48,457 nt of DNA, taken from NCBI GenBank assembly GCA_937770485.1, contig CALJHX010000027.1, positions 1 through 48,457 on the forward strand, in the 5' to 3' direction. Every line of letters starts with the position of its first letter. The stretch's first letter is position 1. The DNA is from an uncultured Verrucomicrobiae bacterium (GTDB lineage: Bacteria; Verrucomicrobiota; Verrucomicrobiia; Limisphaerales; UBA1096). The notes beneath the pieces are model-generated. The model was given only the letters and a program-made list of their open reading frames with translations, had not been told where the DNA came from and did no database searches. Shown here in pieces: positions 981-48,457 of the stretch. The position numbers were made by a program, and so were the translations under genes.

Positions 981-2492
981 TCACTTGATTCTACTCAATC
1001 TCACGTCGAGGGCCTTGGCAAAGCGGGACACGATTTTGGCATAGTTAGGCTTGCCAGCGAGGTTGGTCCATTCGTGGGGGTCGTTTTTTCGGTGGTAAAG
1101 TTCCTCGCTGCCGTTGCTGTATCGGATGTAGCGCCAGTTTGTGCCGCTAATGGCGTGGTTTCCTTTGTCAAACGTGGTGATGGCAAGACGATTACTGATG
1201 GCTTCCGGGTTCGTGAGTTGGGAGCGAAGTGACTGACCATCGAGACGGTGGACCTGTTTCAATCCGCACAGATCAACGAGCGAGGGGTAAAGGTCGATGA
1301 GGCTCACAGGGTTGTCGCAGGTGGCATTTGTGGCGAATCGACCTTCGCTAAAGCTTGGCGGGAGGATGAGCAGAGGAACCTGCGTGGAACGCTGCCAGCC
1401 GGTCCATTTGCCCCAGTGCTGTTTTTCGCCGAGATGCCAACCGTGGTCGCCAAACAAAATTACCCATGTGTTTTTGCTGTGCGGTGTCGAGTCAAGCACA
1501 TCGAGGATGCGACCGACCTGTGCGTCGATGAAGGTGACGCAGGCAAGGTAGGCCCTGACCGCCGCCTGCCATTGTCCATGTTTGACCGTTGTGGCGTGAG
1601 CCCCAGCAGTAACGGCCTCAAGGGCCCACTTGCTCGCGACCGGGCTGAGGTCCTCAAGGTCATCCTCGCGGACTAGCGGCAATTTGATATCGATACCGTC
1701 GTACAGGTCAAAATATTTTTTTGGCGCGTATAATGGAATGTGCGGGCGGTAGTAGCCGACGGCCATAAAGAAAGGCTTGGCTGCGGATTGCCTCCGCAAA
1801 TTCTGAATCGCCCAGTCGGTAATTTTGCCGTCGCCCATGTCACCGTCGGCCACGTCCAGCGACGCCCAGTCAAACGACTCACCCTTGGGATCGTTAGGGC
1901 TGCGGTCGCTTGGCATTCGATTGAACGGCAGCACGTACTCACGGCCATTCATGCGGATGACATGGCGTGGGTTGTCGCCGCCCTTGCCCGATAACTCGGC
2001 CTTGGTGTACTTGGCTGACTTGCCGGTGAACGGGCTCCAACGTTGCTCGGGGAAAAACTCACTCTGAAAGACACTACGGCTGCTTCCGTGCAAAAGTTTG
2101 CCGGTGCCAAAAGTTTTGTAACCGGCGTTTTGAAATACTTGAGGAAGCAGCAGAACACCGGGGTTTTCCTTATGCCAACCCTTGTCGTTGTTACTGTACA
2201 TGCCGGTATGGAACGGCTGGCGCCCGGTGAAGATGGCGTTGCGTGACGGTCCGCAGAGTGGCGCGGCGCAGTGGGCGTTGGAGAAGAGTACGCCGCGCTT
2301 GGCCAAACGATCGATGTTCGGCGTGATCGCCTGCGGGTGTCCGCCAAAACAGCCCAGCCAATCGTTCAAGTCGTCGATTGCAATGAAAAGCACGTTGGGC
2401 TTTTCCGCCGCCTTACCAGGCGGCTTGGCAAAGGGCTGGGCTGCGGCGGTTAGGCACAGCGCGAGCATTATCGTAAGCTTGCGACAAGTCAT
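981..2492 (-). CDS. Secreted sulfatase (formylglycine-dependent, iduronate-2-sulfatase-like)
   Basis: A 503-residue protein of the alkaline phosphatase/sulfatase fold. It has a Sec signal peptide (TIMLALCLTAAAQPFA). The first metal-binding element is NVLFIAIDDLNDW, and the modification motif C-G-P-S-R has its Cys at about residue 80; this Cys would be oxidised to formylglycine. A downstream LFGDHGWHLGEK segment carries further metal and sulfate-binding residues. The layout resembles iduronate-2-sulfatase-type arylsulfatases, which remove sulfate from polysaccharides outside the cytoplasm. I chose ATG at 2492 over an in-frame TTG at 2516, because it puts the signal peptide at the N-terminus and avoids overlap with the divergent glycosyltransferase. 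RLAKRG near residue 62 is encoded by one of the dispersed TTGGCCAA sites. The actual substrate cannot be read from the sequence. Confidence 0.9.
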   Translation of the reverse strand: MTCRKLTIMLALCLTAAAQPFAKPPGKAAEKPNVLFIAIDDLNDWLGCFGGHPQAITPNIDRLAKRGVLFSNAHCAAPLCGPSRNAIFTGRQPFHTGMYSNNDKGWHKENPGVLLLPQVFQNAGYKTFGTGKLLHGSSRSVFQSEFFPEQRWSPFTGKSAKYTKAELSGKGGDNPRHVIRMNGREYVLPFNRMPSDRSPNDPKGESFDWASLDVADGDMGDGKITDWAIQNLRRQSAAKPFFMAVGYYRPHIPLYAPKKYFDLYDGIDIKLPLVREDDLEDLSPVASKWALEAVTAGAHATTVKHGQWQAAVRAYLACVTFIDAQVGRILDVLDSTPHSKNTWVILFGDHGWHLGEKQHWGKWTGWQRSTQVPLLILPPSFSEGRFATNATCDNPVSLIDLYPSLVDLCGLKQVHRLDGQSLRSQLTNPEAISNRLAITTFDKGNHAISGTNWRYIRYSNGSEELYHRKNDPHEWTNLAGKPNYAKIVSRFAKALDVRLSRIK

Positions 2493-2630
2493 TTGCTTGG
2501 TCGGCAGACAGTGCAACTGGCCATGCCGTCTTTCAAGTTTTCAGTTGCACCATTACTCCGACGTTTCTGCTGGCCAAGCGGGTGGTCTTCAGAAAGACTT
2601 TCGGCGCTTCGGGGAGCGCAAGTCAGAGGA

Positions 2631-3914
2631 TTGAATATCATTCAGATCACACCTGGCGCCGGGGGCATGTATTGCGGGAATTGTTTCCGCGACAATGCTC
2701 TCGTGACGCAGCTCAGGCGGATGGGCCACCATGCGCTGATGATTCCGCTGTATCTTCCACTCACGCTGGATGAGGCGGACCAAAGCGAGGGCACGCCACT
2801 CTTCTTCAGCGGGCTTAATGTCTATCTCGCACAGAAGTTCAACTGTTTCCAAAAAGCGCCGAACTGGCTCCGAAAATGGTTAACCTCCGGGTGGCTACTC
2901 AACTGGGTTGGTAACTTCGCCGGCAAGACCCGTGGCTCAGAAGTCGGCGATCTGATGCTCTCGATGATGCGCGGCGAGGCTGGCAATCAGGCGCGCGAAC
3001 TCGAGCAACTTATCGTCTGGCTAAAGGAACACGAGCAACCGGATGTCATCTGCCTGTCCAATGCGTTGATCGCCGGCCTGGCGAAACGTATCAGGCAGGA
3101 GATTGGCGTGCCAGTAGTCTGCCTGCTAGAGGGCGAAGATGCGTTTCTCGACTCGCTGCCCAGCCCGCAGCGAGAGGACACTTGGGCCGAGCTTCGTGAG
3201 CGCATTGCTGATATCGATCTGTTCATCGCGCCGACGCGCTATTACGCCGACACCATGGCCCAGCGCGCCGGAATCCCTGCCGACAAGCTTGAGCACATCC
3301 ACAACGGCATTAACCTTGAGGGCTTCGAGCCAAGCACTCTACCGGACAACCCGCCGGTGCTGGGCTACTTCGCCCGCATGTGCCCGGAGAAGGGACTAGA
3401 TACACTCGTCGATGCGTTTATCCGTTTGAAGCAAAACGACCAAGTGCCGGGGCTCAAGCTGGCCATCGGCGGAGGCTGCCAACCGTGTGACGAAGCTTTC
3501 GTCAAAGAACAAAAAAAACGGCTCCGGACCGCCGGCCTGCTCGGCGATGCAGACTTCCTACCGAACCTTGACCGCGATGCGAAGCTAGCATTTTACCGTG
3601 GACTCACCGCGCTCAGCGTGCCCGCAATGTTTGGCGAGGCGTTTGGCCTGTATGTGGTCGAGGCGATGGCCAGCGGTGTGCCGGTGGTGGCACCTAACCA
3701 CGCCAGTTTCCCGGAGATGGTTGAGCAAAACCAAGCCGGTGTAATCTGCGAAAAAGACAGCGCCGCCGCCTTGGCCGATGCGATCGGGCAGTTGCTGCTC
3801 GACCGCGAGCGCTTGGCCAAGTGCGCTGCCGCCGGCCGCCAAGCCGCCGTACAAACCCACAACATCGAGCGCATGGCCGAGTCGTTCGTCGCCCGCTTGG
3901 CCAAGCTGCGCTGA
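2631..3914 (+). CDS. GT4-family glycosyltransferase
   Basis: About 427 residues with a GT-B fold. The N-terminal domain begins LNIIQITPGAGGMYCGNC, with a Gly-rich acceptor-side loop. The C-terminal domain has PVLGYFARMCPEKGLDTL and the retaining-transferase E-x7-E element in FGEAFGLYVVEAMASG, followed by PVVAPNHASFPEM. It would transfer a sugar from a nucleotide donor in the cytoplasm, probably to a polysaccharide or lipid; the acceptor is unknown. Start choice: homologous proteins normally begin just before NIIQITPG, so TTG at 2631 is preferred, with GGGGAG 14 bases upstream. The frame stays open back to a TTG at 2493 and an ATG at 2523, but that extension is R/S/W-rich and partly overlaps the divergent sulfatase. 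The C-terminus (RLAKLR) ends in a TTGGCCAA site. Confidence 0.82.
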   Translation: MNIIQITPGAGGMYCGNCFRDNALVTQLRRMGHHALMIPLYLPLTLDEADQSEGTPLFFSGLNVYLAQKFNCFQKAPNWLRKWLTSGWLLNWVGNFAGKTRGSEVGDLMLSMMRGEAGNQARELEQLIVWLKEHEQPDVICLSNALIAGLAKRIRQEIGVPVVCLLEGEDAFLDSLPSPQREDTWAELRERIADIDLFIAPTRYYADTMAQRAGIPADKLEHIHNGINLEGFEPSTLPDNPPVLGYFARMCPEKGLDTLVDAFIRLKQNDQVPGLKLAIGGGCQPCDEAFVKEQKKRLRTAGLLGDADFLPNLDRDAKLAFYRGLTALSVPAMFGEAFGLYVVEAMASGVPVVAPNHASFPEMVEQNQAGVICEKDSAAALADAIGQLLLDRERLAKCAAAGRQAAVQTHNIERMAESFVARLAKLR

Positions 3915-3935
3915 GCGTTAAGAGCTAAAGAGATT

Positions 3936-4008: not shown

Positions 4009-4073
4009 GATCACAACTTGAAACTCCTTTTCCGGCTTTGCGGCTCACCGGACAGGCCGTAAGGTTGCCCGCC

Positions 4074-6308: not shown

Positions 6309-6315
6309 CCGACGC

Positions 6316-6329
6316 CGCTTGGCCAAGCG
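6316..6329. repeat. CGCTTGGCCAAGCG palindrome (intergenic)
   Basis: A complete 14-base copy of the window-wide palindrome. It lies in the 30-base gap between the DUF255 gene stop and the ATG of the CoaB-like gene, 9 bases before that ATG, so it occupies the expected ribosome-binding region. Confidence 0.9.
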
Positions 6330-6338
6330 ACCAACCCC

Positions 6339-6980
6339 ATGCACTGCATCGTCACCGCCGGACCAACTTATGAGCCGATCGACCAGGTTCGCCGGTTGAC
6401 CAACCACTCGACCGGCCAACTCGGCACCGGCCTGGCCAAGCGCTTGGCCGCCAAAGGCCACGAGGTGACACTGCTGCGCAGCCGCTCGGCCACCCACACA
6501 GAACAGCTTGAAGGTGTTGAGCTTAAACAATTTACTACAACAGCCGACTTGGCTGAGAAACTGAAGCACTCGACCGAAGTTGACGCAGTTTTTCACGCGG
6601 CTGCCGTGAGTGACTTTGCCGTTGGCCAGGTTTTTCGGCGGGACGACGACGGCCAACTCAAGCCGCTGAACGTGGGCAAACACAGCACCCGCGATGGCGA
6701 CATGCTGCTCGAACTCAAGCCAACGCCGAAGATCATCGCCAGCCTGCGCGAGTGGTTTGCGGAAGCGCTTTTGGTGGGCTGGAAGTACGAGGTCGATGGC
6801 GACCGCGACTCGGCGCTTGGCCAGGGGCAAACGCAGATCGTCGAAAACCAAACCAACGGCTGCGTCGTCAACGGCCCTGCTTACGGCGACGGTTTTGGGT
6901 GGCTGTCGAACGCTGACCAAGCGGAGCACTTGGTTGACAAAACGGAGTTGTTCAACAAGCTGGCCGGCTTGGCCAAGTAG
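6339..6980 (+). CDS. Stand-alone CoaB-type phosphopantothenoylcysteine synthetase domain protein
   Basis: A 213-residue protein matching the C-terminal (CoaB) half of bifunctional Dfp/CoaBC. It opens with CIVTAGPTYEPIDQVR, followed by LTNHSTGQLG, the nucleotide-binding Rossmann signature of the family. A later AAAVSDFAV and the LKPTPKII segment correspond to conserved active-site elements. CoaB joins cysteine to 4'-phosphopantothenate using CTP in coenzyme A synthesis. The flavin decarboxylase half (CoaC) is absent here and no coaC gene lies nearby, so a separate CoaC or a second full CoaBC must exist elsewhere if this copy serves CoA synthesis. Otherwise it is a paralogue of uncertain function. 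It starts at ATG 6339 and ends LAGLAK, encoded by another TTGGCCAA copy. I do not assign a symbol because the role is not certain. Confidence 0.75.
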   Translation: MHCIVTAGPTYEPIDQVRRLTNHSTGQLGTGLAKRLAAKGHEVTLLRSRSATHTEQLEGVELKQFTTTADLAEKLKHSTEVDAVFHAAAVSDFAVGQVFRRDDDGQLKPLNVGKHSTRDGDMLLELKPTPKIIASLREWFAEALLVGWKYEVDGDRDSALGQGQTQIVENQTNGCVVNGPAYGDGFGWLSNADQAEHLVDKTELFNKLAGLAK

Positions 6981-6986
6981 CCGCGA

Positions 6987-9961: not shown

Positions 9962-10066
9962 AGGTCAGATTGAGTTGCGCTTGGCCAATCGCTTGCTTGG
10001 CCAGAGAACGCCCGGAGTCTGGAGAAAATCGAGCCGGAAACAAAGGCAATTCTCCCGCCAAGCGCC

Positions 10067-13125: not shown

Positions 13126-13139
13126 CGCTTGGCCAAGCG
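13126..13139. repeat. CGCTTGGCCAAGCG palindrome (intergenic)
   Basis: A full 14-base copy in the divergent gap between the metalloprotease and ribBA, 28 bases before the ribBA ATG. Confidence 0.9.
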
Positions 13140-17008: not shown

Positions 17009-17791
17009 ATGATAAACGACATCCGACGGATCGCCGCCGAGGCCGGTGAGGCGATCATGAAAACCTACGACGGCCCAGCCGAGATCGAGACCAAAGAAGA
17101 CGACTCGCCACTCACTCAAGCCGACCGCGCCGCGCACGACTGCATCGTCGCCGCGCTGGAGCAATTCACGCCGGACATCCCGATTTTGTCCGAGGAATCG
17201 GAAAGCATCCCGACCGAAGAGCGGCTGGGCTGGAAACGCTTCTGGCTCGTCGACCCTCTCGACGGCACCAAGGAGTTCATCAAAAAAACCGGGCAGTTCA
17301 CCGTTAACATCGCGCTGATCGAAAACGGCGAACCAACACTTGGCGTGGTGTTGGCCCCGGCATCTGACTTGGAATACTTCGCGGCTCGCGGCAGCGGAGC
17401 ATTCAAGCGGCTTGGCCAAGCGGAGCCGCAACCGATCAAGATCGCCGAGGCCGACAAAGCCAAGCTGCGCATCGTCGCCAGCCGCGATCACGCCGGCCCG
17501 AAAGTCGCAGCCATGCTCGAGCAACTCCCGGATGCCGAACTGGTGAGCATGGGCAGTTCACTGAAATTCTGCCTCGTCGCCGAGGGTGCGGCCGATCTTT
17601 ACCCGCGCTTTGTCCCGACGATGGAATGGGATACCGGTGCGGCCCAATGCATCCTCGAGGAAGCCGGAGGTGCTGTCTGCACCCTCGACGGCTACCGACT
17701 GGCCTACGGCCGCGATGACCTACGTAACCCCTCCATCATCGCAGCCGGCCACCCTACAATAGATTGGAAGTCATTGTTACCGAGTGATTAA
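17009..17791 (+). CDS. cysQ: 3'(2'),5'-bisphosphate nucleotidase
   Basis: A 260-residue inositol-monophosphatase-fold enzyme that hydrolyses PAP/PAPS to AMP/APS, protecting sulfate assimilation from product build-up. Metal ligands are visible: Glu in LSEESES, then DPLDGTKEF, with the third site in MEWDTGAAQCI. The order and spacing match CysQ, and the length is close to the 246-270 typical of the family. It starts at ATG 17009, 9 bases after the hrpB stop, without a clear Shine-Dalgarno sequence. FKRLGQAEP is encoded by one of the dispersed palindromes (17412). Confidence 0.93.
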   Translation: MINDIRRIAAEAGEAIMKTYDGPAEIETKEDDSPLTQADRAAHDCIVAALEQFTPDIPILSEESESIPTEERLGWKRFWLVDPLDGTKEFIKKTGQFTVNIALIENGEPTLGVVLAPASDLEYFAARGSGAFKRLGQAEPQPIKIAEADKAKLRIVASRDHAGPKVAAMLEQLPDAELVSMGSSLKFCLVAEGAADLYPRFVPTMEWDTGAAQCILEEAGGAVCTLDGYRLAYGRDDLRNPSIIAAGHPTIDWKSLLPSD

Positions 17792-17803: not shown

Positions 17804-17815
17804 GCTTGGCCAAGC
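17804..17815. repeat. GCTTGGCCAAGC palindrome, with a second core copy at 17860
   Basis: A 12-base copy in the gap between cysQ and the Fur-family gene. A second core copy (TTGGCCAA at 17860-17867) lies within the spacer of the proposed promoter, so two copies occur within 65 bases. Confidence 0.85.
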
Positions 17816-17847: not shown

Positions 17848-17876
17848 TTGACACTGCTCTTGGCCAATGGCAGATT
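17848..17876 (+). promoter_or_regulatory. Possible sigma-70 promoter of the fur-suf operon
   Basis: A perfect TTGACA at 17848-17853 is followed, after a 17-base spacer, by CAGATT at 17871-17876, which matches TATAAT at three of six positions. If used, transcription would begin within a few bases of the ATG at 17883, giving a leaderless mRNA. The weak -10 leaves this tentative. Confidence 0.35.
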
Positions 17877-18344: not shown

Positions 18345-19786
<1,442 letters not shown>

Positions 19787-26059: not shown

Positions 26060-26080
26060 GGCCAAGCGCTTGGCCAAGCG
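26060..26080. repeat. Compound palindrome GGCCAAGCGCTTGGCCAAGCG
   Basis: Two overlapping palindromes, GGCCAAGCGCTTGGCC and CGCTTGGCCAAGCG, share their middle. They lie in the purU-murJ gap, just before the murJ stop codon. Confidence 0.9.
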
Positions 26081-37900: not shown

Positions 37901-40900
37901 AAGAGTAGCCCTCCTCCGGCACCCCGGTGAAGGTGACTTGCGTTCCTGGTGCGTAATGGTCCTGCAACGGGTCGAGCGCAATGCGACCCACCCCGGTGGT
38001 AGACCGGTTGATGACGTAATGCACCGCCACGGTTGCCGGCAAACTGGTGGCCGCGCCGAAGCGGTTGGTGAGCTTAACGGTATACTGGCCGGCGTTGGCT
38101 TCCAGAGCCTCCTCGAATGCAAGTGCGTTGCGCGTTGCGCTGTCGATCGCCACACCGTTGAAGTACCATTGGTAGTCGAGCGGATCACCCTTGCCGCGCA
38201 CGGATAGCGCAAGCCATGAGCCGCTCGTGACTACTTCATCCTGCGGCTGCGTCGTAACCTCGGGCAAAACAATCTCGTTGTACGCGACTGACTGCTGCCA
38301 CTCGAACGTCGTGCCGGAGATGACGCGGAACGCTTGGCCAAGCGCGATGACCGGCTCGCTCGGTTGCCATGCATCAGTAGTGAATGTGTGGGTGACGTAC
38401 GAGCCAGTCTCGTTATCGAACAACTGCACCTGCAGTCCGTCGGCTGTTGGCAGGCCAAGCACGGTCGTGACGCCGCCGTCGACCGGCGTCATCGCGCTGC
38501 GAAACGCTGCCGTTGCCGGGATGGCCGAGGCGAGGTTGCCCTGCAACGCCACTCCAAAATATTCAATCGCAATCTGCCCCTCGCCGGCGTTGTCCAGCAC
38601 AGCCCCCTCACCGGGATCGAGCGTCATCGCCGGGTTATCCCACGAGCCGCCCACGAGCACGTTCATCACCAACTCCCCGGTCACCTCGTCGAGCTTGGTC
38701 AAGCTGCTACCGTCCGGCAGGGAGGCGAACAAGTTTGCCACCGTGTTGCCATCCTCGCGGTCAAGCGGATTGGCGATAAGCGACGGGCCCTTGGGATATG
38801 TCACTCGCACGAAGCCGATGGCGTTTTTCGAGTATTTCTCGGTCTTGAGCAGCGCACGGAAAAACAGCGTATTCACCCCGCCGGGCCGGTTGACCACCTT
38901 GCTTTTTTCGCCGGAGGCGTTGAACATCTCGTCTGCCTTGCCGGCCTTTGTAAGCAGCTTCCAGTTCCGCAGGTCGCCCGAGTACTCGAACGCGTTGGTT
39001 GTCCAGCGATGTCCGCGCATCTGAAAACCAAGCTGCGACTCGGTGAGGCTGACGTTGAAAAATTCCGGCTCGTCGAATATCAGCCACTCGAGCGCTGTCG
39101 ACTCGGAAGTGACCTCGCCGATGGCGGTGCGAATGTTAACCGAGTAAGCGCCCTCTATGTCCGGCGTCATCACCCCCAAGTCGACCGTGGCGGCGGTGGC
39201 ACCGTCGATCGCCTCACCGTTGAGGCTCCACTGGTATCCGAACGGCCCCGTACCCCGCGGTTCAACCCGGAACACAACGTTTGTGTGAATGCCGATGACC
39301 GTCTCAACCGGCGTCGGCGCAGCCGTCATGGTAACGTCTGCGCCGCTGATGATCTTGGCTTTTTTCGGCGTGCCGATGGTCGGCAGGATCGCATCCAGAA
39401 CGGCAGTCTTGCTACGCGTGAAGCCTACGCCGTTGCGGATCACCACCTCGTAACGGCCCATGTGTTCGGGTTGGTAATTGTCAATCGTGTACGTTGCCAT
39501 CACCGCCCCAGCGATATCCTTTTCCTCAAACCGCCACTGGTAAGTAAACGGCGCAGCGCCCTTGAGTTGCACCGCCAGTGAAACCGTCGAACCGAACTCC
39601 ATGATGGTTTGGCTGGCCGGATGTTGCGTGACCACCGGTGGGTCGTCCGGCTGGAAAGCCATGAATCCCCACCACGTGCCCCACCGGTCGCGCTTGTCAT
39701 CTGGGATGTTTGCCTGCTCGTTGTTGCGCGTCTCGGCGTACATCTGTATGGTCCACATATCGGTGTCGTTGTTGGGGTCGACCTGTGCAGCGCTGTAATC
39801 ACCCCAGCTGTTGCGGCCATCGGAACGCAGCTTCACATACGGGGCGACGCCGGCCTTAAACAGCACCGGCTTGCTCATTTGGCCGAGCGGATCAGACGCC
39901 TTGCGGTAGGAAAAATAAGCGCTGGCGTAAGTGTCCTTGGTGAACCCAGAGTAGCCGATTAGCACGTCGCTATTTTTGTTCACAGCTACGCTGGGAAAGG
40001 TGTAATGTTTGACGGCGTTTGTGTCCTGAATATAGCCGCGCTGGAGGATCGACGCGTTGGTCTCAAGGTTCCACCATTGGATCGCTGTGCGGTTTACATT
40101 CGTCACGCCCTCAGGCAAAAAAACATGATGTGCGGCCCACAGCTTGCCGTTGCGCTTGGCTAAGGCGTGCATGCGCGAGTCGTTGGCAAAGATGCTCTTT
40201 GTTCCCGCCTTCTGCGGCGAGATATTTGTCTTGCCGATGGAAAACTCCCACGGCTCGATGTCAGCCAGAGACGTGCGAGCGTAGCTGGGGGTGTAATGCT
40301 CCTGGCCCACCCTGCCGGATAAGGCGCTGATCCGCAGGGCGCGCGTGCCCTGCTCAGTGATGAACAGCAGATTGGTGTCATTGGCATCGTACGTCGTCGC
40401 TGGCACGACGGTGAAAAAACCGGGATCGTCAAACTGCGTGTAGCGTGCCTTGCCTTCTTGAATATAGTCCGGTTTATGGAAAGCAAAAATACGCGAACCA
40501 ACAACTTCCTTGGTGCCTTCAACTTGGTTAGTGCCCTTGTAAAGATTCACCGAGGCGGCCAACCATTTCTTGTTGTAGCCAACGCTGGGATAATCGGCGT
40601 ACAGATAGTTGTCCGGGAGGGCTTCCGGGTGTACGCGGATCGAGGCCATGTCCCAGTCACCGGTCGGATCACTCGTCTGCGACAGCGCAATCAACACCGC
40701 CGACTTGGTGGTGTTCACATCGGCGATGGTGAAAACCACCCAGCGCTTGGCCAAGTGGTCGTAAACAACCTTCGGGTCGAACACAAAACCGTGGCTGAAG
40801 CCGGCCCAGAAATCACCCAGACCCACCTTGCTCAACAGCTCACCCTCGCGGGTCTGGATGGCAATCTCGGTGTTGAGAGCCACCACAAGGTGCTCGGGGC

Positions 40901-41645
40901 CAACCGCACCGTGTGTGTCCGCCGGAATCACCGTGTGGTTGTCGATGACGGCCAAAAAATCATCCCGCACGCCCGGCTCGAAATCACCGCCCAATAGCCT
41001 CGGGCCATTCAGCCTCGGCTTGACCGCGCTACCCGGCGCACCCATTTTCTGAATGCTCAACAGCCGGTGCCGCCGAACAGTGTCGTCCGGCTCCGGGTTG
41101 GCCGCAGCCAGCCGCTTGGCCAAAGAAGTGAAATTCATGGTGATCGTGCGGATCTCCGGGTAGTCGTCGCCGAGCGTGTTTGGCTTCGTGTCGTACCGCT
41201 CCGGCGCAGCAATCTCCAAGCCGGGCGGCAACGGTGGCAGCGGAGCGATCCCGACCAAGTCGTCACTCGGCAAGCCGTCCTCGCTATCCGCCCCAGCAAG
41301 CCATCTCGCGTAGCCCGGCAGCAAGTCACCAAGGCCGGACTCCAGTTCGCGCTTGGCCAAGCCAATGGCTAGCGGTGCCATTCGGTGGCCATCGTTCGTG
41401 AACACATCGACCGCACCGACGTCCGCTTGGCCAAGCGGCGTTTGGGACTCGATCATCATGTCGAGGTCACCGTCGCCATCGAGATCCGAAAGAGTGATGG
41501 ACGGCATCTCGCGCGGCGCAGGTGCCTTGGCAGGCCCGCTCGCCCAGGTCACGGCAAAAACCATGCCGGAGGTGATGCAAACGAGCACAAAAAGCACCTT
41601 CCAACGTCGGGCCAAATGCTGAGTCTGGCGAACTAGGGGAATCAT
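31944..41645 (-). CDS. Giant secreted multi-domain protein with Ig-like and InlB-B-type repeats
   Basis: A 3233-residue protein with an N-terminal hydrophobic signal (WKVLFVLVCITSGMVFAVTW). A DxDxDG segment follows (LSDLDGDGDLDMMIE, about 50-64). Residues about 200-650 form a propeller-like region (AVIDNHTVIPADTHGAVGP). An Ig-like domain (HPASQTIMEFGS) precedes four modules of about 418 residues, whose markers are GFVRVTYPKGPSL (about 943), GFHLLDIPTGKSL (1358), GYVTLTLPEGKSL (1777) and GYVNLEIAPGQSL (2197). Each module holds a beta-rich unit with GEGAVLDN-like text, an Ig-like unit (YQWYFNGVAI-type) and an InlB-B-type unit (MDAHKTITANFSRDY). After 2530 come four bacterial Ig-like units (PPTVAITSPKNG), a LamG-like domain (LRLWLDGSGIAQEGG) and a C-terminal unit ending FFRVRAE. 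It is probably surface or extracellular. No enzyme motif was recognised. Confidence 0.9.
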   Translation of the reverse strand: MIPLVRQTQHLARRWKVLFVLVCITSGMVFAVTWASGPAKAPAPREMPSITLSDLDGDGDLDMMIESQTPLGQADVGAVDVFTNDGHRMAPLAIGLAKRELESGLGDLLPGYARWLAGADSEDGLPSDDLVGIAPLPPLPPGLEIAAPERYDTKPNTLGDDYPEIRTITMNFTSLAKRLAAANPEPDDTVRRHRLLSIQKMGAPGSAVKPRLNGPRLLGGDFEPGVRDDFLAVIDNHTVIPADTHGAVGPEHLVVALNTEIAIQTREGELLSKVGLGDFWAGFSHGFVFDPKVVYDHLAKRWVVFTIADVNTTKSAVLIALSQTSDPTGDWDMASIRVHPEALPDNYLYADYPSVGYNKKWLAASVNLYKGTNQVEGTKEVVGSRIFAFHKPDYIQEGKARYTQFDDPGFFTVVPATTYDANDTNLLFITEQGTRALRISALSGRVGQEHYTPSYARTSLADIEPWEFSIGKTNISPQKAGTKSIFANDSRMHALAKRNGKLWAAHHVFLPEGVTNVNRTAIQWWNLETNASILQRGYIQDTNAVKHYTFPSVAVNKNSDVLIGYSGFTKDTYASAYFSYRKASDPLGQMSKPVLFKAGVAPYVKLRSDGRNSWGDYSAAQVDPNNDTDMWTIQMYAETRNNEQANIPDDKRDRWGTWWGFMAFQPDDPPVVTQHPASQTIMEFGSTVSLAVQLKGAAPFTYQWRFEEKDIAGAVMATYTIDNYQPEHMGRYEVVIRNGVGFTRSKTAVLDAILPTIGTPKKAKIISGADVTMTAAPTPVETVIGIHTNVVFRVEPRGTGPFGYQWSLNGEAIDGATAATVDLGVMTPDIEGAYSVNIRTAIGEVTSESTALEWLIFDEPEFFNVSLTESQLGFQMRGHRWTTNAFEYSGDLRNWKLLTKAGKADEMFNASGEKSKVVNRPGGVNTLFFRALLKTEKYSKNAIGFVRVTYPKGPSLIANPLDREDGNTVANLFASLPDGSSLTKLDEVTGELVMNVLVGGSWDNPAMTLDPGEGAVLDNAGEGQIAIEYFGVALQGNLASAIPATAAFRSAMTPVDGGVTTVLGLPTADGLQVQLFDNETGSYVTHTFTTDAWQPSEPVIALGQAFRVISGTTFEWQQSVAYNEIVLPEVTTQPQDEVVTSGSWLALSVRGKGDPLDYQWYFNGVAIDSATRNALAFEEALEANAGQYTVKLTNRFGAATSLPATVAVHYVINRSTTGVGRIALDPLQDHYAPGTQVTFTGVPEEGYSFASWGGDASGGTAQTTVTIDKHLTVTADFSRDYIMPTLSDAHFRTDGIFQFTVVAEPGVENNIQYSFDLENWVDYRTETNPGELYIPVIPPVGVKGMYFRVLVTSKGYSDNIVGFHLLDIPTGKSLLSNPLAKGDNTLSTLLPDGPAKLTVSTWDSDSGSWKASTFGDAWSDVGLVSAPGQAAMFDNNTGSALTLQYTGSVVQGRLASPLPSGVTYHAATLPVAGGLATDFGFPVVNGLKVSLLENSTGDWMTSTFSGGVWSPGEPSLAAAQGFRVTANASTSWNRNINLNSQGTPKIATQPVGAIRIAGQPVSFSVEATGTPLEYQWRFNGLNIAGANAATLELTDVQQANAGGYSVYIKNPFGNILSDAASLAVHYTLDVAGAGRGVVTHTPELVSYPNRARVVLNATPSKGYVFTNWSGAASGAANPLAVTMDANKSITGLFTRDVVPPEYRSVEINTAGQLEWVQVARPGKKLTSDYSLDLLNWKEFTSDSSASDEMRVPFNRPQGINNLFIRMWEEDTGYAARAIGYVTLTLPEGKSLISSPLANGGNRVSDILPSVPIGSTLAKLNSATGNWETNTFTGGWSQPGMTLAPGEGAVLDNKGDAFSVLLTGFTPWQKTSLSIPAGDSVVSPALAKGGLLSSRLGLPLAEGLVVKLLNNGTGKYDTYTVLNDAWSPSEPVIALGQAFIVIAPSMFSWNHDPTLPQVTAQPTDAQVLSGGKVGFMVKAVGEPLAYKWLFDGKPIAGATASAIQVPVVNLANAGRYSVVVSNGFGKAISESARLDIYYKLKLALEGRGGIGVDPEKSIFLAGSKATLSASPVTGYSWMHWSGDASSSDETITVTMDAHKTITANFSRDYILPDLSDAGFDSKGRFIFLLSSEPGANCEIQGSTDGIRWNKLGGYQNKNGLVRIPMAYNAGVEKQFVRVLVVDELAPGRLAGHSINAVGYVNLEIAPGQSLYHVPLSLSGSKTVAALFQGAAKGSKVAILDSETGEWAEGELGDTWSNGAVELDQGSIFKFTNTDTKVFRAVFVGSYPGQGTEVSLAKGAVYFGYPAPLSGAAGYDLQFPASAPAGTKLGLLQADGETAWHTYDGAVWSPSEPSLSTMQAVQVELPADLAWATHGIPDFNSKPKLRAITGAGTYLAGKETLLMRLDTVGTPMTIQWTKGNKPIAGATQSSLQLVNLTPSHAGRYAVMLRNAFGIENSNPVEVNVHYTLTATVEGEGAIEVNPSLATYPPGTTVTLIARPGGGLGFVEWEGDVSGSAESVTLVMDDHKSVSIRYLSDNQPPTVAITSPKNGRFFSAPSDVEITLDAADADGSITHVLYESKLLDAAEWVALGQSDSAAASFTWEGASEGVYEIRASVTDNRGGKTESAPIQITLTTGNLPPVIVSTSPSAGDFVPVPGKFTFTVVAYDPDGEIKSIRINEGYTFTKANGPTYWTENDEGQTVLTDIRWESGAYDNSTPTLFTVDVGDDKDKITTEKVRFTVNHPPTIELTSPKNGAEFVSPATIALAATASDNTADGALRKVEFFANGETLGAASKAPFEIPWAGVGAGDYEITASVTDYHNQVVTTPPVSITVSQGAAITLTEPVADIAFAPGGTARLAATVTPGAAAITKIEFFKNDRLIGADTEAPYELDWTEPETGLYRISATATDAKGGSAISGSVEAAVFDSASLPALGLRLWLDGSGIAQEGGKVSAWADRTPFGHDVRQSEADRQPTFHSEGANGKPAVIFDGADDVLGVVVNGARLLSSDTASLFIVMKQDRASANNALLGWESNSQLNHLDLLFTYNDQLLFDYGNVSAGGRILAAQPERWDDLWNLVEVYRTGESGLVAVAGETVFSDTFAGELDVEVDGALTLGGVGGLHFGGAVAEVLVYNRALGVGERESVGKYLGVKYGFIEDVTPVDPNAPTLSAGQLAADDKFRFLVTGDKGGKVVLQFSENLDKWIDMQTYTNESGQLWININRDADAGRLFFRVRAE
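35835..35848. repeat. CGCTTGGCCAAGCG palindrome (giant gene, third module)
   Basis: A full 14-base copy encoding ALGQAF in the beta-rich unit of one module of the giant protein. The equivalent site of another module, at 38331-38344, carries the identical palindrome. Confidence 0.9.
38331..38344. repeat. CGCTTGGCCAAGCG palindrome (giant gene, first module)
   Basis: A full 14-base copy that encodes ALGQAF at the same position of the module as the copy at 35835-35848. Confidence 0.9.
41424..41437. repeat. CGCTTGGCCAAGCG palindrome (giant gene, N-terminal part)
   Basis: A full 14-base copy that encodes PLGQAD near residue 72 of the giant protein. Another 12-base copy lies 72 bases away (core at 41353). 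Confidence 0.9.
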
Positions 41646-43071: not shown

Positions 43072-43092
43072 CTTTTTCGCCGCGCTTAAGCC

Positions 43093-44489: not shown

Positions 44490-44507
44490 GTGTAAAATCG
44501 ATCGCAA

Positions 44508-46679
44508 TCAGAAAGGCGGCTTGGAGCGTGATTTCTTGGTTGGTAACTGCAATTTGCGGGCCGGTTTTTCGCTAGTGTTTGCGTTGCCGCTTTTCCTGGA
44601 AAGCTTTTTATCCACTTTTCTCCGGCGGGCGTCCTCGGCGGCCTTGAACTCGGCCTCAGCCTCGCGGATACCGGGAAGACGCTGGCGTTCCTGCGAGACC
44701 ATCAACGCGGCGTCCTCGGGCGTCTTTAGAATGGTCGGGCGAATCAGGACGAGCAGTTCCGATCGTTTGCTTGTGGCAGATTGACTCTTGAACAGGCTGC
44801 CCAGCAGGGGAATGTCCTTGAGAAAAGGCACGCCGGACTCGGTGTCGGTCTTGGCATCCCGGATGAAGCCGCCCAACAGGATTGTGTCGCCGTCCCGAAC
44901 CGAGATGGTGGAGCTGGCCTCGCGCTCGGTAGTTTGCGGCGCCTTCTGGCCGGCGGCTCCCTGCTGCCCGCCACCCATGTCGATGAAGCCGTCCAACTCG
45001 GAGATGGTTTGTTGAATGTCCATGACGACCAAGTCATCCGGGGTGATGTAAGGCGTCACGTCCAGCGTGATACCCACATTTAGAAACTGGGTGAAGCCGC
45101 CGCCGCCACCGTAGCCACCGTAACCACCACCGTAACCACCATTGTAACCGCCACCGAAACCGCTGCTCCCCTGGTAGGGAACCTGCTCACCGTTGAAGAA
45201 TGTCGCCGGGACGGCGTGACTGGTCTGCACACGCGGGGTTTGCAGCACTTTAGCCGTGCTGTTGCTCGCCAATGCGCTTATGGCAAACTCGAGTGAATTG
45301 TCATAACGGCTGATATAGGAGAACCCACCTGCCAAAGCACCGGCGCCGAGTGTGTTGAGGGCACTCCCGGCAGCGGCAACGACATTACCAGCATCGGCCG
45401 CATCCCCTTGGCCTTCCTGATTTCCACCCACGGTGTTGGCGGGTGGGGTTGTTGTGGGAGCCGCTCCCGCGGTTGAAGGGCCGCCGTTCATAAAGCCGCC
45501 GATATGGCGGGTGTCTCCGGGGCCTGCCGCCGCATGCATAAAGGCGTTCATCCCGGTGTTCATCCCGTCGGTCAGAGTAACGTTCACGATGATGGCCTCG
45601 ATGAGCACCTGCGCCAACAGGCTGTCCACGTAGCCGACGATTTCTTCAATTTTCGCCATGTCGCCGTCGTTGGCGAATATTATAAGTGAGTTGGAACGGT
45701 AATCGGGGATGATGCGGGCATTCTCCAAAATCTGGATGTCCCCGCCGGCGGCGCGGTTCACGATGCCCTGCAGCCTGTTGCGGAATGAGTTGGACGTACT
45801 ACTGGAGGAGGTGGAGGGACGATTCTGAAGCGAGCGAACCGAACCCCGCGATGAGCTGCCTCGGCCCGTGCTGCCCTGCGATGAGCTGGTTCGGCCCGAG
45901 GTTCTCGAGGTGCCAGAGGAGCTTGGTCGGGGCGAACTGGAGCCGGTGATCAAGTCCTGCATTGTTGCGTAGATTTCCTCCACCTTGCCATAGCGGATCG
46001 GGATGACCTTGAGCTTGTAGTCCTCCTCCGGCTTGATATCGATACGCTCGAGCAACTCGAGCATGCGCTTGATGTTGGAGGAGTTGTCGCGCAGGACGAG
46101 TGTCTTGCTGACGTCGAGAGCCACGATGCCGGCGGCGTTCTTGGCCATCGGCGTGAGCATCGGCACAGCCTCGCTGGGCAGTATGTGTTTCAACTGCTTG
46201 ATGTGCGTGATGTACTGGTTGGCCTCTGGTAAATCGGCGGCATCGGTAATGGTCAAGAATGCGGCACCCTCCTGCAACGCATTGGCACTGGGCACGAACG
46301 TGACGAATTTTTCCCCGACCGGGATGGTGGTGTAGCCGTTGAGCGAGAGAACGCTGTCCATCGCTTGAATGGCCTCCACGACAGTCAGCGGTGTCTGCGC
46401 CTGAAGGGTGACGTTGAGATTGGGCAACGCCGCCGCCCGCAGGATGGTTCGGTTGACGTAGTTGGCGTAAATCTCAAGGAACTGCTCCAGCGGCATGTTG
46501 ACCAGTTGCAGATCAGCCATCGGGATGACGGCGTCCATGGCCAGGGGCGCACCGACGGGATCAGCCGGGGCGTCCGCTGCTGCATTGCCGGGTGTCGGCG
46601 GGGCGGGCGGGTTCGCGGGTTGTGCTTGGCCAAGCGCTGCGAATGTCAGTGTGAGGATACCGGTGATGAGGTTTTTCAT
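44508..46679 (-). CDS. Secretin (GspD/PilQ family outer-membrane channel)
   Basis: A 723-residue secretin-type protein. The Sec signal is LITGILTLTFAALGQA, in which ALGQA is coded by a palindrome. N-domains follow (ADLQLVNMPLEQFLEIYANY, then TLQAQTPLTVVEAIQAMDSV), with a KVEEIYATMQDLI segment. Two low-complexity stretches occur: a Ser/Arg/Gly-rich linker at about 260-310 and a Gly/Tyr-rich one (GGYGGGYGGYGGGGG). The C-terminal secretin domain has LLAQVLIEAIIVNVTL, TPRVQTSHAVPATFF, VGITLDVTPYI and RDGDTILLGGFIRDAK, ending RSELLVLIRPTIL. It forms the outer-membrane gate of a type II secretion system or type IV pilus. ATG at 46679 gives the best signal peptide; an in-frame ATG at 46709 is also possible. 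It follows GspM/PilO- and GspL-like genes. Confidence 0.93.
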   Translation of the reverse strand: MKNLITGILTLTFAALGQAQPANPPAPPTPGNAAADAPADPVGAPLAMDAVIPMADLQLVNMPLEQFLEIYANYVNRTILRAAALPNLNVTLQAQTPLTVVEAIQAMDSVLSLNGYTTIPVGEKFVTFVPSANALQEGAAFLTITDAADLPEANQYITHIKQLKHILPSEAVPMLTPMAKNAAGIVALDVSKTLVLRDNSSNIKRMLELLERIDIKPEEDYKLKVIPIRYGKVEEIYATMQDLITGSSSPRPSSSGTSRTSGRTSSSQGSTGRGSSSRGSVRSLQNRPSTSSSSTSNSFRNRLQGIVNRAAGGDIQILENARIIPDYRSNSLIIFANDGDMAKIEEIVGYVDSLLAQVLIEAIIVNVTLTDGMNTGMNAFMHAAAGPGDTRHIGGFMNGGPSTAGAAPTTTPPANTVGGNQEGQGDAADAGNVVAAAGSALNTLGAGALAGGFSYISRYDNSLEFAISALASNSTAKVLQTPRVQTSHAVPATFFNGEQVPYQGSSGFGGGYNGGYGGGYGGYGGGGGFTQFLNVGITLDVTPYITPDDLVVMDIQQTISELDGFIDMGGGQQGAAGQKAPQTTEREASSTISVRDGDTILLGGFIRDAKTDTESGVPFLKDIPLLGSLFKSQSATSKRSELLVLIRPTILKTPEDAALMVSQERQRLPGIREAEAEFKAAEDARRRKVDKKLSRKSGNANTSEKPARKLQLPTKKSRSKPPF

Positions 46680-46713
46680 GGCTCTCGAGTGTTTTGTGTG
46701 AAATTTCATGGCT

Positions 46714-47478
46714 CTATTGTGTCTTGCGCGTGCGCCGGGTGGGGACGGATCGCTTGGGAACCGTGCGCTTGGCCGGCTTGGGTTCCGCCGCGGGCTTGGC
46801 TGGCTCCGGCTTGGCCTCGACCGGTTTTGCCTTGTCCACGATTGCTGGTTTGGCCTCGGTAGCTGTCTTAGGCTTGCTCGCGGCCGGCGTAGTCTCAGCG
46901 GCCTGTGCGGTCGACTGGACTCCAGCTACCTTGGGATCTTTTTGGTAACTGGCAGTAAGGTTCATCCAGCCGTCCAGTTTGAAGCGGTTCTTATCCGGGC
47001 GCACGCGCATCTCGCTCACGCGAACCATCGAGTCGTTGCCTCCGAGTTTCCAGAGAAAGTTGACAATGTCACTCTCCTTGCTGGAGAAATCGATACGCAT
47101 CGATTTTTCGAGGAAAAAATCGTTGGTCTTGGTGGTCATGCGCCCGGTACGGGTGACCTGCACGCCATTGGCTGCGGTAAGATTGTTGATGGCCCGGCGC
47201 ATGTTCACCTCCTGCTCGATCTTGATCACAGCCGAACCCAAGCCCTCGAGCTCCCCTATCTTTTTCTTGTAATCCGGAATCTTGCTGATCTCGTTTGTGA
47301 AACTGTTCAACTGCTTTTGCGCCTTGGCGATCTTGTTCTGGGTCACCCCCGGGCTGGGGATCATCCCCCATACCATCCACGCAAGCGCGAGCATCAGTAC
47401 CACCAACACGGCCATGACCAACCGCCGCTCGCCGCTGCTCAGGTTCAGCTTGTCAAATATGCTTTCGTTACTCGCCAT
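46714..47478 (-). CDS. GspM/PilO-like inner-membrane protein
   Basis: A 254-residue protein: short cytoplasmic N-terminus, one transmembrane helix (LVMAVLVVLMLALAWMVWG), then a coiled-coil periplasmic part (QNKIAKAQKQLNSFTNEISK) and a small alpha/beta domain (MRIDFSSKESDIVNFLWKL). A low-complexity Lys/Pro/Ala tail ends the protein (KPVEAKPEPAKPAAEPK). The layout and position between a GspL/PilN-like gene and a secretin gene fit the alignment subcomplex of type II secretion or type IV pili. Sequence identity to named families is not obvious, so the call rests mainly on architecture and context. ATG at 47478 overlaps the upstream gene's stop. Confidence 0.7.
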   Translation of the reverse strand: MASNESIFDKLNLSSGERRLVMAVLVVLMLALAWMVWGMIPSPGVTQNKIAKAQKQLNSFTNEISKIPDYKKKIGELEGLGSAVIKIEQEVNMRRAINNLTAANGVQVTRTGRMTTKTNDFFLEKSMRIDFSSKESDIVNFLWKLGGNDSMVRVSEMRVRPDKNRFKLDGWMNLTASYQKDPKVAGVQSTAQAAETTPAASKPKTATEAKPAIVDKAKPVEAKPEPAKPAAEPKPAKRTVPKRSVPTRRTRKTQ

Positions 47479-48457
47479 TGAACTCACATACCAACGACCA
47501 AATGGTCTGGTTTTTTCTCGTGTCCTGCCGGATCGTCACCACCTTCACGCCGGAAAACAACAGTGCCTTCTCATTCTCATTGACAGCCTCCATCTGCGTC
47601 ATTGGCCGCGTCATTCGCGTGAGCGCCTCCTGGTAATCGTCAATCAACTTCACCTTTTCGGCTTCCGCAGCTCCGCTGATCCGCAGCTCCCGGCTTGTGT
47701 TACCGTCGAGGCTGCGGCTCGACGCAAACGCTAACTCGGTGAACTTCAGATCACCCGGCAGTCCAGTGGACACCTTGGCCCAAGCCTGGAGCGCGGCATA
47801 CTTGAGCGCCTTTTGTTTCTCGAGCGTCTCCACCTTGGCCTTGAGCGAGAGCGCCTCGGTGAACAGATTGGTTTGGGCGGTCACCAAGTTAATCTTATCG
47901 TCAAGCGTACTCTGCAGCATGCTTCCATAAACAAAAAACCCTAGCAACCCCATCAGCATTATCGCAATCGCTCCCTTGACCCCCTCCATCCACAGGCTGT
48001 CCTGATATCGCTGACGGTTGCGAAGGCTGTAATCCTCGATCATCAGGCCGGGTGCCGTTGTCCGGGAAGCAAACTCCACTGCCGCCGTAGCCAGATCCAC
48101 CTCGCTCATCGGCTCGACCTCTCGGATGCGGTCGAAACACTTGGCCAAGGCCGCATTCCAGTCGCCCGCCACGTCGCCACGCTTGACCAAGTGGCAGGCC
48201 GGCTCACCCGGCATCCAGCCGGCGACCTCTCCTGCCAGAGCAACGCTGTTGATTTTCTCCACCAACGCATCGCGGCTGGCTGCGGTGTCCGGCAGGTTGA
48301 ATGAATTCACATCGCGCAGTCGGCCGGCGAACCACCACGACACCAGCGCCAATACCGAGTCGGCCCCCTGCACTAGCTGAATGTGCGCTCCGTCCTCCCT
48401 TGGCTCACCGGGCACCACCTCCCGCAGCAGCGGCACCTCCACCCGGTCGGCGAGATA
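47468..48457 (-). CDS. GspL/PilMN-like protein (partial, continues beyond the window)
   Basis: The open frame has no stop before the window edge, so the 5' end is missing. The visible part has a soluble N-terminal stretch (ADSVLALVSWWFAGRL, then HLVKRGDVAGDWNAALAKCF), a transmembrane helix (GAIAIMLMGLLGFFVYGSML) and a coiled-coil periplasmic region (KAKVETLEKQKALKY) ending with a beta-rich domain (KVVTIRQDTRKNQTIWSL). GspL, and the PilM-PilN pair, have just this cytoplasm-helix-periplasm layout. The context (PilO-like gene and secretin downstream, with overlap of 11 bases) supports it. Whether the missing part contains an actin-like fold cannot be seen. Confidence 0.65.
   Translation of the reverse strand, partial: YLADRVEVPLLREVVPGEPREDGAHIQLVQGADSVLALVSWWFAGRLRDVNSFNLPDTAASRDALVEKINSVALAGEVAGWMPGEPACHLVKRGDVAGDWNAALAKCFDRIREVEPMSEVDLATAAVEFASRTTAPGLMIEDYSLRNRQRYQDSLWMEGVKGAIAIMLMGLLGFFVYGSMLQSTLDDKINLVTAQTNLFTEALSLKAKVETLEKQKALKYAALQAWAKVSTGLPGDLKFTELAFASSRSLDGNTSRELRISGAAEAEKVKLIDDYQEALTRMTRPMTQMEAVNENEKALLFSGVKVVTIRQDTRKNQTIWSLVCEFNGE

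What the first reader, a model, noticed from the sequence alone, without database searches (positions are those of the whole stretch)
2299..48148. A highly iterated palindrome, CGCTTGGCCAAGCG, spread across the whole window
By eye I count the 8-mer TTGGCCAA 37 times, the 10-mer CTTGGCCAAG 28 times, the 12-mer GCTTGGCCAAGC 16 times and the complete 14-mer 8 times in 48.5 kb. With about 60 percent G+C, fewer than one 8-mer is expected. Core starts are 2299, 3813, 3897, 6319, 6969, 9981, 11488, 12025, 13129, 15638, 16001, 16613, 17412, 17806, 17860, 18773, 20761, 21036, 21163, 23816, 24356, 25042, 25821, 26070, 30206, 30501, 31587, 35838, 35986, 36253, 38334, 40747, 41116, 41353, 41427, 46626 and 48141. 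They occur in unrelated genes on both strands, so it is not a protein domain or a transposon. HIP1 (GCGATCGC) of cyanobacteria behaves this way; this is a different sequence. Possible roles are a methyltransferase target (GGCC core), a nucleoid or replication-linked protein site, or an uptake or mutation-bias signal.
Basis: partly seen in the sequence, partly recalled or inferred. Interest (0 to 1): 0.93.

Follow-up and report, generated by a model that had tools for sequence, protein, structure and literature searches.

The report
Palindromic DNA uptake sequence in Verrucomicrobiota
A short palindromic DNA word repeated about two thousand times in one Verrucomicrobiota genome is better kept in relatives that retain the DNA-import gene comEC than in relatives that lost it, so it likely serves as a tag by which these bacteria recognise and take up DNA of their own kind.

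Summary
It is genome-wide, 2,074 cores in 3.30 Mb against 101 for the reversed word, and confined to one genus: 17 of 20 congeners hold 1,086-4,314 cores, while 382 sampled genomes of other genera in the class have 0-90 ten-mers against 1,288 here. Sites are conserved beyond neutral words. What tracks the word is comEC, the inner-membrane channel of natural transformation. Of 14 genomes whose ffh-comEC-vanZ locus can be read, comEC is intact in 9, absent between joined neighbours in 4, a remnant in 1. Excess site retention ranks all 9 (0.27-0.70) above all 5 (-0.02 to 0.26); phylogenetic regression p=0.0003, or 0.0011 without the low-GC clade. Best reading: a palindromic DNA uptake sequence in a new phylum. 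Uptake and receptor are untested; comEC of this genome is not in its assembly.

The parts
2299..2306 (.). TTGGCCAA core
   Evidence: exact match
3813..3820 (.). TTGGCCAA core (10-mer)
   Evidence: exact match
3897..3904 (.). TTGGCCAA core (12-mer)
   Evidence: exact match
6319..6326 (.). TTGGCCAA core (full 14-mer 6316-6329)
   Evidence: exact match
6969..6976 (.). TTGGCCAA core (10-mer)
   Evidence: exact match
9981..9988 (.). TTGGCCAA core
   Evidence: exact match; exact in 4 of 6 aligned relatives
11488..11495 (.). TTGGCCAA core
   Evidence: exact match; site-by-species table
12025..12032 (.). TTGGCCAA core
   Evidence: exact match; site-by-species table
13129..13136 (.). TTGGCCAA core (full 14-mer 13126-13139)
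   Evidence: exact match; site-by-species table
15638..15645 (.). TTGGCCAA core
   Evidence: exact match; site-by-species table
16001..16008 (.). TTGGCCAA core (10-mer)
   Evidence: exact match; site-by-species table
16613..16620 (.). TTGGCCAA core (10-mer)
   Evidence: exact match; site-by-species table
17412..17419 (.). TTGGCCAA core (12-mer)
   Evidence: exact match; site-by-species table
17806..17813 (.). TTGGCCAA core (12-mer)
   Evidence: exact match; site-by-species table
17860..17867 (.). TTGGCCAA core
   Evidence: exact match; site-by-species table
18773..18780 (.). TTGGCCAA core (10-mer, in sufB)
   Evidence: exact match; site-by-species table
20761..20768 (.). TTGGCCAA core (full 14-mer 20758-20771)
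   Evidence: exact match; site-by-species table
21036..21043 (.). TTGGCCAA core (12-mer)
   Evidence: exact match; site-by-species table
21163..21170 (.). TTGGCCAA core (12-mer)
   Evidence: exact match; site-by-species table
23816..23823 (.). TTGGCCAA core (12-mer)
   Evidence: exact match; site-by-species table
24356..24363 (.). TTGGCCAA core (10-mer)
   Evidence: exact match; site-by-species table
25042..25049 (.). TTGGCCAA core (full 14-mer 25039-25052)
   Evidence: exact match; site-by-species table
25821..25828 (.). TTGGCCAA core (10-mer)
   Evidence: exact match; site-by-species table
26070..26077 (.). TTGGCCAA core (full 14-mer 26067-26080)
   Evidence: exact match; site-by-species table
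30206..30213 (.). TTGGCCAA core (10-mer)
   Evidence: exact match
30501..30508 (.). TTGGCCAA core (10-mer)
   Evidence: exact match
31587..31594 (.). TTGGCCAA core
   Evidence: exact match
35838..35845 (.). TTGGCCAA core (full 14-mer 35835-35848)
   Evidence: exact match
35986..35993 (.). TTGGCCAA core (10-mer)
   Evidence: exact match
36253..36260 (.). TTGGCCAA core
   Evidence: exact match
38334..38341 (.). TTGGCCAA core (full 14-mer 38331-38344)
   Evidence: exact match
40747..40754 (.). TTGGCCAA core (10-mer)
   Evidence: exact match
41116..41123 (.). TTGGCCAA core
   Evidence: exact match
41353..41360 (.). TTGGCCAA core (12-mer)
   Evidence: exact match
41427..41434 (.). TTGGCCAA core (full 14-mer 41424-41437)
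   Evidence: exact match
46626..46633 (.). TTGGCCAA core (12-mer)
   Evidence: exact match
48141..48148 (.). TTGGCCAA core (10-mer)
   Evidence: exact match

Best explanation
The palindrome with core TTGGCCAA, present 2,074 times in this Verrucomicrobiota genome, is most likely a DNA uptake sequence, that is, a self-recognition tag predicted to be bound at the cell surface so that DNA carrying it is taken up preferentially during natural transformation. Shown: the word is genome-wide and confined to one genus among the genomes searched, its symmetric flanks are graded (S-C-G-C-TTGGCCAA-G-C-G-S), and it is equally over-represented inside and between genes. Shown: sites are conserved beyond neutral words in species with an intact comEC, and less so, down to the neutral level, in species whose comEC is missing between joined neighbours or reduced to a remnant. 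Inferred: the drive works as proposed for known uptake sequences; fragments carrying the word enter more often through a pilus-type apparatus and ComEC, recombine into the chromosome, and so turn near-matches into matches, and without ComEC mutation erodes them. Untested: uptake itself, the receptor, and comEC of this particular strain, whose ffh-comEC locus is not in its 83%-complete assembly.
For: Density 500-1,080 cores per Mb in 17 of 21 genus genomes, of the order recalled for Haemophilus USS and Neisseria DUS. Graded symmetric motif, flank positions 83/62/59/81% and little beyond. O/E 12.4 between genes and 11.5 in genes; 381 in-gene sites against 55 +/- 6 under synonymous shuffling. Window sites kept in comEC-intact relatives: G008 11 of 11, G013 16 of 19, G003 12 of 17, G015 12 of 18, G018 12 of 18, against 0.19-0.28 for control 8-mers; G007 12 of 19 and G016 12 of 19 against 0.39 and 0.32. 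comEC by synteny: intact in 9 (7 whole, 2 as pieces at contig ends), absent between joined ffh and vanZ in G009, G001, G019 and between ffh and vanZ with other ORFs there in G020, remnant with a stop in G004; PF03772 also finds none in those five genomes. Excess retention 0.27-0.70 in 9 of 9 intact, -0.02 to 0.26 in 5 of 5 lost or remnant. Phylogenetic regression p=0.0003 (n=14), 0.0011 without G001/G019; four separate losses on the tree. Decay index of the 10-mer: 4 of 4 lost (1.73-5.55) above 9 of 9 intact (0.38-1.43), p=0.003, or 0.019 with G004 counted lost. comEC is under purifying selection, dN/dS 0.14-0.23 over 21 pairs of the 7 whole genes.
Against: No uptake assay and no receptor. The uptake sequences I know of are non-palindromic (recalled; stated for USS in PMC12616744). 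comEC is unreadable in 7 of 21 genomes, the window's own among them. G004's decay index (0.67) lies inside the intact range. The gap between worst intact (G011 0.27) and best lost (G020 0.26) is narrow; G020 still keeps 7 of 18 window sites against 0.15 control, so its decay is partial. G014, comEC-intact, kept 3 of 6 against 0.63. Matched-site tests are weak: G009 vs G016 17 vs 3 lost (p=0.003) with one outgroup, 7 vs 3 and 9 vs 2 (n.s.) with two others, and neutral words also changed more in G009; G020 vs G018 14 vs 4 but neutral words 1435 vs 322, so no excess there. The three poorest genomes are also low in G+C. Other genes lost along with comEC were not surveyed. Without phylogenetic signal and without the low-GC clade the decay-index regression is not significant (p=0.18).
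Confidence: 0.6

Rival explanations
1. Transformation-coupled but not an uptake tag: the word is a recombination or protein-binding site acting after entry, spread by biased conversion during transformation, so it also decays when comEC is lost.
For: Fits the same comEC association. Cores exactly 12 bp apart are over-represented (7 of 480 gaps, about 0.5 expected), hinting at a cooperative DNA-binding protein.
Against: Known Chi sites are asymmetric (recalled); no recombination protein was tied to it here, none was looked for.
Confidence: 0.15
2. Binding site of a nucleoid-associated or chromosome-organising protein specific to the genus, maintained by ordinary selection and lost with general genome change.
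For: Palindromy suits a dimeric DNA-binding protein; sites are genome-wide and conserved.
Against: Reduced maintenance follows comEC in four separate lineages, two of them still G+C-rich (G009, G004). Spacing is near-random (CV 1.07), which does not exclude it.
Confidence: 0.12
3. HIP1-type palindrome created by methylation-directed repair or kept by an orphan methyltransferase, as proposed for cyanobacterial HIPs.
For: Same kind of object in density: Elhai 2015 (PMC4390886, sections read) gives about 500-2500 per Mb and a putative matching methyltransferase for every cyanobacterial genome with a highly over-represented word, though it also notes HIP1-rich genomes without the CGATCG enzyme.
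Against: PF01555 0 of 21, PF02086 0 of 21, PF00145 1 of 21 (G008 only), PF02384 3 weak hits of which the one checked is PrmC. These searches rang in 11, 4, 10 and 13 of 14 control genomes.
Confidence: 0.05
4. Plain compositional or codon-usage bias, or a mobile repeat.
For: The commonest frame reads LAK, with ordinary codons.
Against: 11-fold above a third-order Markov model, 7-fold above synonymous shuffling, equally over-represented between genes, and at 49 aligned columns the genomes lacking the word mostly carry ungapped variants rather than gaps.
Confidence: 0.01

Closest known systems
DNA uptake sequences: DUS of Neisseriaceae and USS of Pasteurellaceae
   Same: Strong genome-wide over-representation of a short word, graded core, many copies inside genes, near-matches in excess, maintenance tied to a natural-transformation gene.
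   Different: Palindromic (USS is stated non-palindromic in PMC12616744, passage seen); different sequence and phylum; intergenic density only 1.4 times coding (1.11 vs 0.78 per kb), not mainly terminator pairs. Uptake and receptor not shown.
HIP1 (GCGATCGC) and alternate HIPs of cyanobacteria
   Same: Octameric palindrome with GC flanks, hundreds to a thousand per Mb, loss in some lineages.
   Different: Unrelated sequence and phylum; no candidate methyltransferase in the four families searched; tied here to comEC. Elhai 2015 (PMC4390886, passage seen) argues on viability grounds against an uptake role for methylated HIPs.
Methylation-marked RAATTY motif of Campylobacter jejuni
   Same: Symmetric motif that governs which DNA transforms (recalled; only a search listing seen).
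   Different: Depends on a methyltransferase (recalled); none found here in the four families searched.
Chi recombination sites
   Same: Short genome-wide over-represented word.
   Different: Chi is asymmetric (recalled); this word is symmetric and tied to comEC.

Membership tests
DNA uptake sequence (DUS/USS) | Strong genome-wide over-representation, of the order of one per kb | tested here: met
   2,074 in 3.30 Mb vs 101 reversed; up to about 1,080 per Mb in congeners
DNA uptake sequence (DUS/USS) | Competence channel ComEC encoded | tested here: inconclusive
   Intact in 9 of 14 genus genomes with a readable locus; the window's own genome does not hold that locus
DNA uptake sequence (DUS/USS) | Word decays when competence is lost | tested here: met
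   Excess retention separates 9 intact from 5 lost or remnant; regression p=0.0003; competence itself inferred from comEC
DNA uptake sequence (DUS/USS) | Fragments bearing the word are taken up preferentially | not testable with these tools
   Needs an uptake assay
DNA uptake sequence (DUS/USS) | Dedicated surface receptor (ComP-like or PpdA-like minor pilin) | not tested
   No receptor search made; a pilin-like N-methyl protein lies at 84-833 but nothing links it to the word
DNA uptake sequence (DUS/USS) | Non-palindromic, often as inverted terminator pairs between genes (a trait of described cases, not a definition) | tested here: not met
   Palindromic; 440 coding and 78 intergenic sites, O/E 11.5 and 12.4
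HIP1-type palindrome | GCGATCGC or related palindrome in cyanobacteria | tested here: not met
   Different word; nearest named relative is a Verrucomicrobia MAG
HIP1-type palindrome | Methyltransferase able to methylate the word | tested here: not met
   families outside these four not searched

The most novel reading that the evidence does not exclude
This is the first palindromic DNA uptake sequence and the first in Verrucomicrobiota: a methylation-free self-recognition code read by an unknown receptor, held in the genome by transformation and erased whenever comEC is lost. By extension, some other highly iterated palindromes of unknown role, perhaps including HIP1, may be uptake codes too.
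Probability: 0.5. Interest if true: 0.92.

Novelty: new variant of a known kind. Interest (0 to 1): 0.8.

Why it matters
Uptake sequences are described, as far as the passages seen and recall go, for two proteobacterial families; one in a distant phylum would show that self-recognition during transformation evolved again with a different, symmetric code. The genus offers a natural experiment, four comEC losses set against the fate of a marked word, that makes the molecular-drive model of uptake-sequence evolution directly testable. It also gives the unsolved class of highly iterated palindromes a methylation-independent explanation to test, and implies that a MAG-only Verrucomicrobiota genus is naturally transformable.

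Tried and rejected
Methyltransferase target: four Pfam families searched in all 21 genus genomes. The single PF00145 protein (G008 only; HTH plus C5 methylase) cannot explain a genus-wide word. The PF02384 hit of this genome is PrmC; the hits in G011 and G019 were not checked.

No dense carrier among those 80; the other 40 stored stretches were not counted and the scan was incomplete.

A different dialect in the motif-poor genomes: no other strongly iterated palindrome in samples of 57, 40 and 89 kb of G001, G005, G019. Regular spacing, as a repair-range model would predict: not seen (CV 1.07; gaps up to 300 bp somewhat in excess).

PF03772 alone (9 of 21) was not trusted because assemblies are incomplete; ffh synteny left 7 genomes unreadable. 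Literature: searches for the word, HIPs, uptake sequences with Verrucomicrobi, palindromic uptake sequences and NIOZ-UU28 showed no report of this motif in their listings; lists were capped (690 papers hold the letters, 20 listed), so absence from print is not proven.
Full report
OBSERVATION. In its genome (G000, 3,301,436 bases, 46 contigs, 83% complete) the core occurs 2,074 times against 101 for the word read backwards. In 148 kb (window plus five stretches) 102 are found against 9.2 from a third-order Markov model.

HOST AND RANGE. A SufB search of genome contigs gave as best match a MAG labelled Verrucomicrobia, NIOZ-UU28 (L002, 96% identity); of the next seven listed, five bear Verrucomicrobia-type labels, and further down Gammaproteobacteria dominate, so the phylum rests on the nearest named relative, which is genus member G008. 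The genus set has 21 genomes: 17 of the 20 others hold 1,086-4,314 cores and G001, G005, G019 hold 192-265; 37 genomes from other families of the order hold 18-350, with reversed controls of 34-376. Of 384 genomes drawn from the class, G000 has 1,288 ten-mers and G008 3,274, the other 382 have 0-90. The word is a feature of one genus, weakened in some members.

ANATOMY. From 639 kb of 16 motif-rich genomes (518 sites, both strands read) the flanks are graded and symmetric: G 83%, C 62%, G 59%, then G or C 81%, and little further out. The one-step neighbours most in excess are transitions (TTAGCCAA 3.9x, CTGGCCAA 3.0x, TTGACCAA 2.2x), as expected of decay products. O/E is 11.5 in genes and 12.4 between them; densities 0.78 and 1.11 per kb. 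The frame is 0 in 273, 1 in 143 and 2 in 24 of 440 coding sites. The word marks the proteome: LAK 4.3-fold and LGQ 4.1-fold over composition, against 1.7 and 1.75 in G001, G005, G019 and G020 together. Gene calls come from a simple codon-score caller of my own. Gaps between sites are near-random (CV 1.07) with mild clustering (40 gaps up to 60 bp, 26.8 expected) and an excess at exactly 12 bp (7 of 480).

METHYLATION. PF01555 and PF02086 match 0 of 21 genus genomes, PF00145 1 of 21 (G008), PF02384 3 of 21 weakly (E about 4e-4); the PF02384 hit of this genome is PrmC, the other two were not checked. The controls rang in 11, 4, 10 and 13 of 14 genomes. Elhai 2015 (PMC4390886: abstract, sections 2.3 and 2.5.3, the first part of 3.4, and passages read) concludes that all cyanobacterial genomes with highly over-represented words have a putative methyltransferase for them, while noting HIP1-rich genomes without the CGATCG enzyme. 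This genus does not fit that pattern on the four families searched.

EVOLUTION OF SITES. Around sufB gene order is shared, giving alignments of up to about 20 kb in 18 of the 20 other genomes; G011 and G012 gave no SufB match. Of 19 window sites there, those aligned are exact in 11 of 11 (G008), 16 of 19 (G013), 12 of 17 (G003), 12 of 18 (G015), 12 of 18 (G018), 11 of 18 (G010), where same-frame control 8-mers are kept 18-28% of the time; 12 of 19 in G007 and G016 (controls 39 and 32%); 14 of 19 in G006 and 6 of 8 in G017 (59%); 3 of 6 in G014 (63%); 1 of 3 in G002 (32%). In comEC-less genomes: G009 7 of 19 (37%), G004 3 of 8 (24%), G020 7 of 18 (15%), G019 1 of 14 (6%), G001 1 of 16 (6%); G005, unread, 2 of 11 (7%). 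In a 16-genome alignment 49 columns carry the word in some genome, and genomes lacking it there mostly show ungapped variants, so sites change mainly by substitution (direction not inferred).

THE comEC ASSOCIATION. PF03772 is found in 9 of 21 genomes. Because assemblies are incomplete I used synteny. In G008, comEC (807 aa; PF03772 and TIGR00360 over cut-off, TIGR00361 below) converges on ffh, and a vanZ-like gene follows; vanZ is likewise beside comEC in all nine intact loci. ffh was found in 15 of 21 genomes, the rest giving none or only a distant paralogue; its surroundings were fetched. comEC is whole in G008, G016, G011, G013, G018, G014, G015; in two pieces at contig ends in G007 and G003; absent, with no tblastn hit at E 0.01 and ffh and vanZ on one contig, in G009, G001, G019 (adjacent) and G020 (other ORFs between, one Endonuclease I/trypsin-like); in G004 only about 142 codons, with an in-frame stop, lie between vanZ and ffh. 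Unreadable: G000, G002, G005, G010, G012, G017 (no ffh held) and G006 (contig ends at ffh). The 7 whole genes evolve under constraint, dN/dS 0.14-0.23 over 21 pairs.

TESTS. Excess retention is exact retention of the word at sites of comEC-intact references, corrected for control 8-mers in the same alignments. Intact: G013 0.70, G008 0.59, G003 0.58, G015 0.48, G016 0.40, G018 0.37, G007 0.33, G014 0.30, G011 0.27. Lost or remnant: G020 0.26, G004 0.16, G009 0.10, G001 0.05, G019 -0.02. Unreadable: G017 0.61, G000 0.38, G010 0.38, G006 0.32, G005 0.03, G002 -0.04; G012 had no aligned block. On a 20-genome tree with motif columns removed (supports 0.999-1.000 except G009/G002 0.71 and G006/G017 0.90), losses fall in four places: G009, G004 (beside intact G015), G020, and the G001/G019/G005 clade. 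Regression on comEC under full phylogenetic signal, n=14 and then n=12 without G001 and G019: excess retention p=0.0003 and 0.0011; log density 0.047 and 0.026; log decay index 0.029 and 0.043. With no phylogenetic signal: 0.0006 and 0.005; 0.018 and 0.052; 0.033 and 0.18. Decay index, (one-mismatch minus background)/(exact minus background) for the 10-mer over whole genomes: 4 of 4 lost above 9 of 9 intact, p=0.003; with G004 (0.67) counted lost p=0.019.

MATCHED SITES point the same way but are small. G009 vs G016: 17 vs 3 lost (outgroup G013, p=0.003), 7 vs 3 (G008), 9 vs 2 (G015); G009 vs G007: 16 vs 4 (G013, p=0.012), 6 vs 3 (G008); neutral words also changed more in G009 each time. G004 vs G015: 4 vs 0 (G003), 4 vs 0 (G013), 2 vs 0 (G018), though neutral words changed less in G004 each time. 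G020 vs G018: 14 vs 4 (G013) and 7 vs 4 (G008), vs G015 9 vs 3 and 6 vs 4, but neutral words changed far more in G020 vs G018 (1435 vs 322), so no excess there. Five intact-intact comparisons show no imbalance (p 0.58-0.79).

READING. Density, grading, substitution dynamics and dependence on comEC are what a molecular-drive model of uptake sequences predicts (Bakkali 2007, PMC1939737, passages seen); frequent loss of competence is described for Pasteurellaceae (Redfield 2006, PMC1626085, passages seen). The palindrome differs from described uptake sequences (PMC12616744, passage seen, for USS; DUS recalled) and would suit a symmetric receptor or one blind to orientation; that is inference. A secretin of GspD/PilQ type (44508-46679) and a pilin-like protein (84-833) lie in the window but are not shown to take part.

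LIMITS. MAGs of 61-93% completeness; comEC of the window's own species unread; co-lost genes unsurveyed; G+C confounds the three poorest genomes; no experiment.

Noticed in passing
Genus-wide (G000-G020): The genus seems poor in canonical DNA methyltransferases: four Pfam families over 21 genomes gave one clear protein and three weak hits.
   Followed up: partly
G008:C53 (L001:358-1899): A lone C5 cytosine methylase with a helix-turn-helix domain in one genome, on a 3-kb stretch with no TTGGCCAA: possibly a recent arrival.
   Followed up: partly
window 44508-48442: Secretin (GspD/PilQ-like) with a GspM-like neighbour and an unnamed 324-aa protein: a type II secretion or type IV pilus cluster.
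   Followed up: partly
window 31944-41597: Giant ORF of more than 3,200 codons on the minus strand with eight motif sites; its C-terminal 318 codons match no NCBIfam model, the rest was not searched.
   Followed up: no
sampled genus genomes and alignment columns: Cores exactly 12 bp apart, overlapping through shared GCGC, occur more often than chance (7 of 480 gaps).
   Followed up: partly
G001, G005, G019: A low-G+C clade (samples 0.40-0.45) in a genus otherwise 0.51-0.63 by samples of some size, with the motif nearly gone.
   Followed up: partly
L296:9130-11318 (G020): Where comEC stands in relatives, G020 has an Endonuclease I/trypsin-like protein gene and another ORF.
   Followed up: partly
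L136, L137 (G018:C1, C2): Two short G018 contigs of G+C 0.39 with one site in 7.7 kb, unlike that genome's sufB block (0.589, 1.08 per kb): perhaps foreign contigs in the bin.
   Followed up: no
window 10143-12992: Large DUF4953/DUF5117 met-zincin protein gene.
   Followed up: no
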